A DNA stretch of 64,000 bases, taken from positions 119,043 to 183,042 of the forward strand of contig JAEEXI010000006.1 in NCBI GenBank assembly GCA_016291495.1. The letters run 5' to 3'. Shown here in pieces: positions 19,364 through 19,561 of the stretch. This DNA comes from Prevotella sp. (GTDB lineage: Bacteria; Bacteroidota; Bacteroidia; Bacteroidales; Bacteroidaceae). The translations under genes were made by a program, and so were the position numbers. Every line of letters starts with the position of its first letter. Position 1 is the first letter of the stretch. The notes under the pieces are model-generated. The model saw only the letters and a list, made by a program, of their open reading frames with translations, searched no databases and was not told the origin of the DNA.

Positions 19364-19561
19364 TCATACTTTGCTCATAGGTTGCTCATAGCTTACTCAT
19401 AGGTTGCTCATAGGCATCTCATAGGCATCTCATAGGCATCTCATAGGATACTCTATCCTGTCTCTATGGTTTCTCTATCCTTTCTCATACCCATAGAACA
19501 TGAATACGGCATGAGATAAATATGAGAAAAGTTTGAGAAAGACGTGAGAAAAATGTGGGAG
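19364..19561. repeat. 11-bp-register tandem array, 18 units, strand switch after unit 12
   Basis: tcatactttgc/tcataggttgc/tcatagcttac/tcataggttgc/tcataggcatc x3/.../tcatacccata then gaacatgaata/cggcatgagat/aaatatgagaa/aagtttgagaa/agacgtgagaa/aaatgtgggag. Confidence 0.95.

What the first reader, a model, noticed from the sequence alone, without database searches (positions are those of the whole stretch)
19364..19561. Second 11-bp-register array with the same architecture but a different core
18 consecutive 11-bp units: 12 with TCATA/TCTAT at the unit start (tcataggttgc, tcataggcatc x3, tctatcctttc), then 6 with the inverted TGAGA core (aaatatgagaa, aagtttgagaa, agacgtgagaa). As in array 1, a long half is followed by a short inverted half, between two minus-strand genes, with the short half nearer the upstream gene's stop codon. 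Similar unit length, copy number and polarity with a different core sequence argues for a recurring system rather than coincidence.
Basis: partly seen in the sequence, partly recalled or inferred. Interest (0 to 1): 0.82.

Follow-up and report, generated by a model that had tools for sequence, protein, structure and literature searches.

The report
Dispersed 11-bp arrays linked to DUF6266
The repeat is one of about 25 scattered copies, in one Prevotella-type genome, of a DNA array with one unit per helical turn; elsewhere such arrays sit in front of genes for two poorly understood protein families (DUF6266 and HU-HIG), pointing to an undescribed pairing of proteins with repeat arrays.

Summary
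The array is real. CTC recurs at exactly 11-bp spacing 11 times (19374-19484), then TGAG at exactly 11 bp 5 times (19512-19556), far above the rest of the window. It is one of ~16 related copies in this Prevotella genome; array 1 belongs to a 9-copy sister family. Arms meet at a 21-bp apex. That module is the 5' region of an HU-HIG gene (PF18291) in this genome and other Prevotella. Array 1's promoter, leader and array precede the genome's only DUF6266 gene (PF19781) and DUF6266 genes in three other species. Of 13 independent DUF6266 loci from several Bacteroidales families, 10 have 11 or 22 bp as best 5' period; cores differ and arms are often inverted. No GU bias, arrays upstream of promoters and copies between divergent genes favour DNA over RNA. 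Best reading: a gene-less dispersed copy of a helically phased binding array, with DUF6266 or HU-HIG as candidate binder. The gene link is well supported; binding is inferred. I found no prior description.

The parts
19364..19494 (+). long arm: about 12 direct 11-bp units, CTCATAGGnnn then CTCTATCCnnn
   Evidence: unit order shared with 15 other copies
19484..19504 (.). 21-bp apex joining the two arms (CTCATACCCATAGAACATGAA)
   Evidence: the apex is 21 bp in the other copies of both families read by eye
19505..19561 (-). short arm: about 5 inverted 11-bp units (nnnATGAGAAA)
19580..19659 (-). four dyads at exact 21-bp spacing (19580-19596, 19601-19617, 19622-19638, 19643-19659), GTTYRCGG..RTRAAC
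   Evidence: conserved as the 5' region of HU-HIG genes in other Prevotella
19676..19703 (-). Bacteroidetes-type promoter: -33 TTTG (19700-19703) and -7 TATCTTTG (19676-19683), 16 bp between the two boxes
   Evidence: sequence; same -7 region as the HU-HIG gene's promoter in L031
4594..4691 (+). array 1 promoter (-33 CTTGC 4594-4598, -7 TAACTTTG 4618-4625) and leader hairpin region
   Evidence: 9 copies in the genome, 5 in three other species
4692..4904 (+). array 1: CTCTATACCnn long arm, 21-bp apex CTCTATTCCCAAGGGATAGAG, inverted short arm
19725..21236 (-). flanking gene radA (context; not part of the element)
   Evidence: in the 16 nearest relatives examined no array follows radA
18308..19228 (-). 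flanking SsuA-like substrate-binding lipoprotein gene (context)

Best explanation
The window array is a gene-less, composite copy of helically phased repeat arrays that elsewhere form the 5' control regions of DUF6266 genes (11-bp units, usually two inverted arms) and HU-HIG genes (four 21-bp dyads behind a promoter). It most likely works as DNA: similar sites one or two helical turns apart are bound side by side by an oligomerising protein. At the parent loci this would be an autoregulatory operator; at the ~25 dispersed sites it would be a nucleoid- or regulation-type binding site carried along as a repeat family. Shown: array, family, architecture, gene association, dispersal. Inferred: protein binding, the binder (a DUF6266 or HU-HIG protein), autoregulation, role of the dispersed copies.
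For: Copies: 16 family-2 and 9 family-1 copies. Parents: the genome's only DUF6266 gene has the family-1 promoter, leader and array; three more Prevotella species have the same. Across Bacteroidales, 14 of 17 DUF6266 5' regions exceed the 95th percentile of 635 controls at lag 11 and 11 of 17 at lag 22; no other lag exceeds 5 of 17. For 10 of 13 independent loci 11 or 22 is the best of 25 lags. Unit sequences are related in sense orientation (p=0.0005). The 21-bp module precedes the HU-HIG gene in L031 and like genes in about nine other species; other HU-HIG genes here carry 22-bp arrays. The module is also joined to a different 11-bp array in G148. DNA rather than RNA: GU and AC pairs are equally frequent in dyads (47:40) and arms; in L213 and L205/L212 the array lies upstream of the promoter; copies lie between divergent genes; -7 boxes are not kept in four of five type-A copies while the dyads are.
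Against: No binding data. DUF6266's predicted fold (strands and helices in the N-terminal half, FN3-like sandwich at the C-terminus) is no recognised DNA-binding fold. Some genomes with 11-bp arrays (G007, G008, G148) lack a detected DUF6266, and three of 13 DUF6266 leaders show no clear array. Family 1 keeps a good promoter in all nine copies, so those arrays are probably transcribed. Arms pair slightly better within than between copies (p=0.012 and 0.035), which allows a hairpin role. Genes next to the gene-less copies form no obvious regulon. Several DUF6266 loci are related, so the counts are not fully independent, and the controls come from Prevotella only.
Confidence: 0.5

Rival explanations
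1. Regulatory RNA: the arrays are leader RNAs or paralogous small RNAs (as in FopS) with their own promoter; CUC/GAG arms form a long hairpin with one conserved patch per A-form turn (11 bp) that controls DUF6266 or acts in trans.
For: Family 1 keeps promoter, leader hairpin and first five units in nine copies, and the promoter, a leader stem and the start of the array in three other species; the leader stem is kept with changed sequence in L041 and the other species; many copies fold better than shuffles; arms pair better within than between copies.
Against: No GU bias; several copies show no fold signal (L028, L029, L032); arrays upstream of promoters and copies without promoters; arms not complementary in G015; no Rfam match at gathering cut-offs apart from tRNAs.
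Confidence: 0.22
2. Selfish dispersed repeat (MITE- or REP-like) without host function, which picked up promoter pieces of DUF6266 and HU-HIG genes and expands by slippage.
For: Discrete family-1 element ends; functionally unrelated neighbours; varied orientation to genes; variable unit number; patchy species distribution.
Against: No terminal inverted repeats or target duplications seen by eye; the one REP-type transposase gene has unrelated flanks; it does not explain why DUF6266 genes of distant species have 11-bp arrays with different cores.
Confidence: 0.2
3. Transcription terminators or mRNA 3'-end hairpins.
For: Several copies start 7-40 bp after a stop codon (L027, L028, L029, L035).
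Against: At least four copies lie between divergent genes, likewise two of six in G022; type C copies have no right-hand complement.
Confidence: 0.05

Closest known systems
ParR/parC plasmid centromeres (for example plasmid R1, 11-bp direct repeats; PMC9426499)
   Same: tandem direct repeats at about one helical turn beside the cognate gene; repeat sequence differs between systems
   Different: here arms are usually inverted, copies are chromosomal and about 25-fold, no ParM/ParR genes seen beside them, and the candidate protein is not a ribbon-helix-helix protein
REP elements and RAYT transposases (PMC3733652 for REPs)
   Same: a gene associated with a cognate palindromic repeat whose gene-less copies are scattered between genes
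   Different: arrays of 11-bp units, not 20-40 bp palindromes; DUF6266 is no Y1 transposase; the genome's single REP-type transposase gene is not flanked by these arrays
BrickBuilt minisatellite MITE of Porphyromonas gingivalis (PMC4596501)
   Same: Bacteroidales dispersed element made of tandem repeats that can fold into long stem-loops
   Different: 23-nt units between terminal inverted repeats related to IS ends; none seen here; different period
FopS paralogous sRNAs of Bacteroides (PMC11697453)
   Same: multi-copy promoter-bearing non-coding loci in a Bacteroidales genome
   Different: FopS is a single-stranded 5' stretch plus a terminator hairpin, without 11-nt arrays; no Rfam match here

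Membership tests
ParMRC partition centromere (parC) | tandem direct repeats of about one helical turn | tested here: met
   exact 11-bp spacing
ParMRC partition centromere (parC) | adjacent parM/parR genes | tested here: not met
   neighbours are radA and an SsuA-like lipoprotein gene here and DUF6266 at the family-1 parent locus
REP/RAYT | cognate Y1 (RAYT) gene flanked by the repeat | tested here: not met
   one Y1 gene in the genome, flanks unrelated to the arrays
MITE (such as BrickBuilt) | terminal inverted repeats and target site duplications | tested here: inconclusive
   none seen by eye in the alignment of nine family-1 copies; no empty sites available
Known structured RNA families (Rfam) | match above the curated score | tested here: not met
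   none in the window, only tRNAs in 16 loci
DUF6266-associated 11-bp array (proposed here) | 11- or 22-bp period in the 5' region of a DUF6266 gene, with related unit | tested here: met
   10 of 13 independent loci; array 1 belongs by homology to the parent copy, array 2 only by unit and architecture similarity
HU-HIG 5' dyad module | four 21-bp dyads just downstream of a promoter, homologous to those before HU-HIG genes | tested here: met
   22 genomes other than this one, of 300 searched, match the module; mean column identity 91% among six copies in this genome
Protein-binding iteron array | demonstrated binding of a cognate protein | not testable with these tools
   needs gel shift, footprinting or ChIP

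The most novel reading that the evidence does not exclude
DUF6266 (and possibly HU-HIG) proteins are the founding members of an undescribed Bacteroidota system in which each protein has its own co-evolving, helically phased inverted array at its gene and scatters or uses gene-less copies of that array around the chromosome, as a new kind of nucleoid-organising or mobile array-protein pair.
Probability: 0.3. Interest if true: 0.88.

Novelty: new variant of a known kind. Interest (0 to 1): 0.72.

Why it matters
It gives a concrete, testable partner to two protein families of unknown role, and offers an explanation for a class of unexplained intergenic repeats in Bacteroidales. If each DUF6266 protein reads its own 11-bp array, the diversity of cores across paralogs becomes a natural data set for protein-DNA co-evolution, and the dispersed copies would be genome-wide binding sites whose role (chromosome structure, silencing, mobility) can be tested directly.

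Tried and rejected
Exact-pattern scans of GTDB contigs and viral contigs for the core found nothing; the element is absent from the plasmid and phage collections. REP/RAYT: rejected on flanks. Rfam and FopS-type sRNA: no family match. Terminator: rejected by divergent contexts. Gene-less copies as remnants of deleted DUF6266 genes: no fragments in 8-kb surroundings. Specific regulon: neighbours unrelated. Strand-specific RNA pairing: no GU excess. Family-1 leader-model hits weaker than about 1e-4 in other genomes look like generic promoters or chance. Comparison downstream of radA in relatives gave no empty sites because gene order differs. DUF6266 of two subfamilies was not found in plasmid and phage collections; one short viral contig carries a gene. 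The CTC-register pattern only finds arrays with that core, so counts of 11-bp arrays in other genomes are lower bounds.

Full report
Observation. The sequence at 19364-19561 is as described. CTC recurs at exactly 11 bp from 19374 to 19484 and TGAG/TGGGAG at exactly 11 bp from 19512 to 19556. The lag-22 autocorrelation maximum of the whole window lies here (0.74) and the lag-11 maximum at array 1 (0.78); outside the two arrays both are 0.455. The two arms meet in a 21-bp apex, which is 21 bp in the other copies read as well.

The family. The window lies in a 2.88-Mb Prevotella-type genome (G000, relatives). Homology searches find about 16 copies of this array and 9 of array 1. Family-2 copies share the order ...CTCATAGGTTG CTCATAGGCAT CTCATAGGATA CTCTATCC... 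but vary in long-arm length (5-12 units) and in the right arm: type A has GAG units, type B TGAC units, type C another sequence.

What else is in the element. Five type-A copies, the window's included, continue into four dyads at 21-bp spacing (window 19580-19659). In the window copy these follow a minus-strand promoter (-33 TTTG, -7 TATCTTTG). The same promoter-dyad module stands before an HU-HIG gene in this genome (L031; PF18291) and before like genes (recognised by their N-terminal sequence) in about nine other species; 22 other genomes of the 300 searched match the module. Gene-less copies occur elsewhere: L163 and L165 are followed by a terminator-like hairpin, L167 (G148) by a different 11-bp array (CTCCAATTGAA). 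The dyads are imperfect, and wobble pairs are as frequent on one strand as on the other (47:40), as expected of DNA sites rather than RNA hairpins. In four of the five type-A copies the -7 box is not kept. Other HU-HIG genes of this genome have 22-bp arrays in their 5' region (L180, L184).

Array 1 and DUF6266. Family-1 copies share a sharp left end just upstream of a promoter, a leader hairpin and the first five array units. One of the nine copies, the most diverged, is the 5' region of the genome's only DUF6266 gene (PF19781). A leader model finds the same promoter, a related leader and the array in three more species (G307, G271, G210), each with a DUF6266 gene. DUF6266 is rare in the genus (3 of 60 genomes) and over-represented in genomes with 11-bp arrays (Fisher p=0.047 uncurated, 0.006 after curation by eye).

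The general rule. Upstream of the DUF6266 genes found, arrays of 11 bp with different cores appear: CCGTATCAAGT (L204), CTCCGTACC (L201), AAGCGTTATTT with inverted arm (L213), ACGTGTTTTAT between a divergent DUF6266 pair (L205/L212), GGATACTAAGT (L214), CTCCAGTACAA 4+4 inverted (L216). The last is also scattered as six gene-less 4+4 elements in the same genome, G022, a different Bacteroidales family. At lag 11, 14 of 17 DUF6266 5' regions exceed the 95th percentile of 635 control regions; 10 of 13 independent loci have 11 or 22 as best of 25 lags. Unit consensuses are more alike in sense orientation than shuffles (p=0.0005), so a common ancestor or reader is likely. Family 2 has no DUF6266 neighbour; it is tied to this system by unit similarity (CATACCTTACT versus CTATACCAACT), by the shared architecture and by the occurrence of CTCATAGGATG-type units in family-1 copies. 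This tie is by eye and weaker than that of family 1.

The protein. DUF6266 has no paper in the library, no related PDB sequence, no PHROG and was not found in the plasmid and phage collections with two query subfamilies. AlphaFold2 (pLDDT 88) gives strands and helices in the N-terminal half and an FN3-like sandwich at the C-terminus. The fold does not name a function.

DNA or RNA. For DNA: arrays upstream of promoters (L213, L205/L212), divergent contexts, no wobble bias, non-complementary arms in G015. For RNA: conserved promoter and leader in family 1, stem kept with changed sequence, within-copy arm pairing slightly better than between copies, folding z-scores down to about -6 in some copies but near 0 in others. 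The explanation that fits all loci is a DNA array with sites one or two turns apart; I give it 0.5, counting the binding step as inference. The identification as gene-less copies of DUF6266/HU-HIG control arrays is stronger (about 0.85 for array 1 and the 21-bp part, about 0.7 for the 11-bp part of the window copy; my estimates).

Known systems. ParR/parC offers the nearest mechanism: R1 ParR needs at least two 11-bp repeats (PMC9426499). Its defining neighbours are missing here. REP/RAYT offers the nearest population pattern, but the transposase test fails. BrickBuilt (PMC4596501) is the nearest Bacteroidales element but has a 23-nt unit and terminal inverted repeats. No membership is claimed.

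Noticed in passing
L184 (5' of an HU-HIG gene, own genome): About seven near-perfect 22-bp repeats (lag-22 score 0.93) in the 5' region of another HU-HIG gene; L180 has a weaker 22-bp array.
   Followed up: partly
window 22069-22100, 22918-22949, 23076-23112, 63641-63695: Period-7 repeats (CTCTCAC, ACCTCTT), partly inside a TonB-receptor-like ORF; period 7 is also the commonest tandem period in about 0.94 Mb of relatives.
   Followed up: no
L053, L056, L068, L082, L100, L104, L123: Other Prevotella carry species-specific 21-22-bp tandem arrays of palindromic units between genes (for example GAGAGAACCGGCACTTCTCTCC).
   Followed up: partly
L016 and L198 (G015): Two-arm arrays in which both arms have period 11 but unrelated units (CTCCAGTGTGA then GCGAAGGAACA).
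   Followed up: no
L131, L133, L155, L159 leaders: The DUF6266 leader could form an H-type pseudoknot (AGTG..CACT with GCTTATAA..TTATAAGC).
   Followed up: no
L204 and L209 (G029): Tandem pairs of ORFs: a DUF6266 gene followed by a 447-aa ORF with a similar start (MARxNxGFLGNASGKxGNVVFAKW).
   Followed up: no
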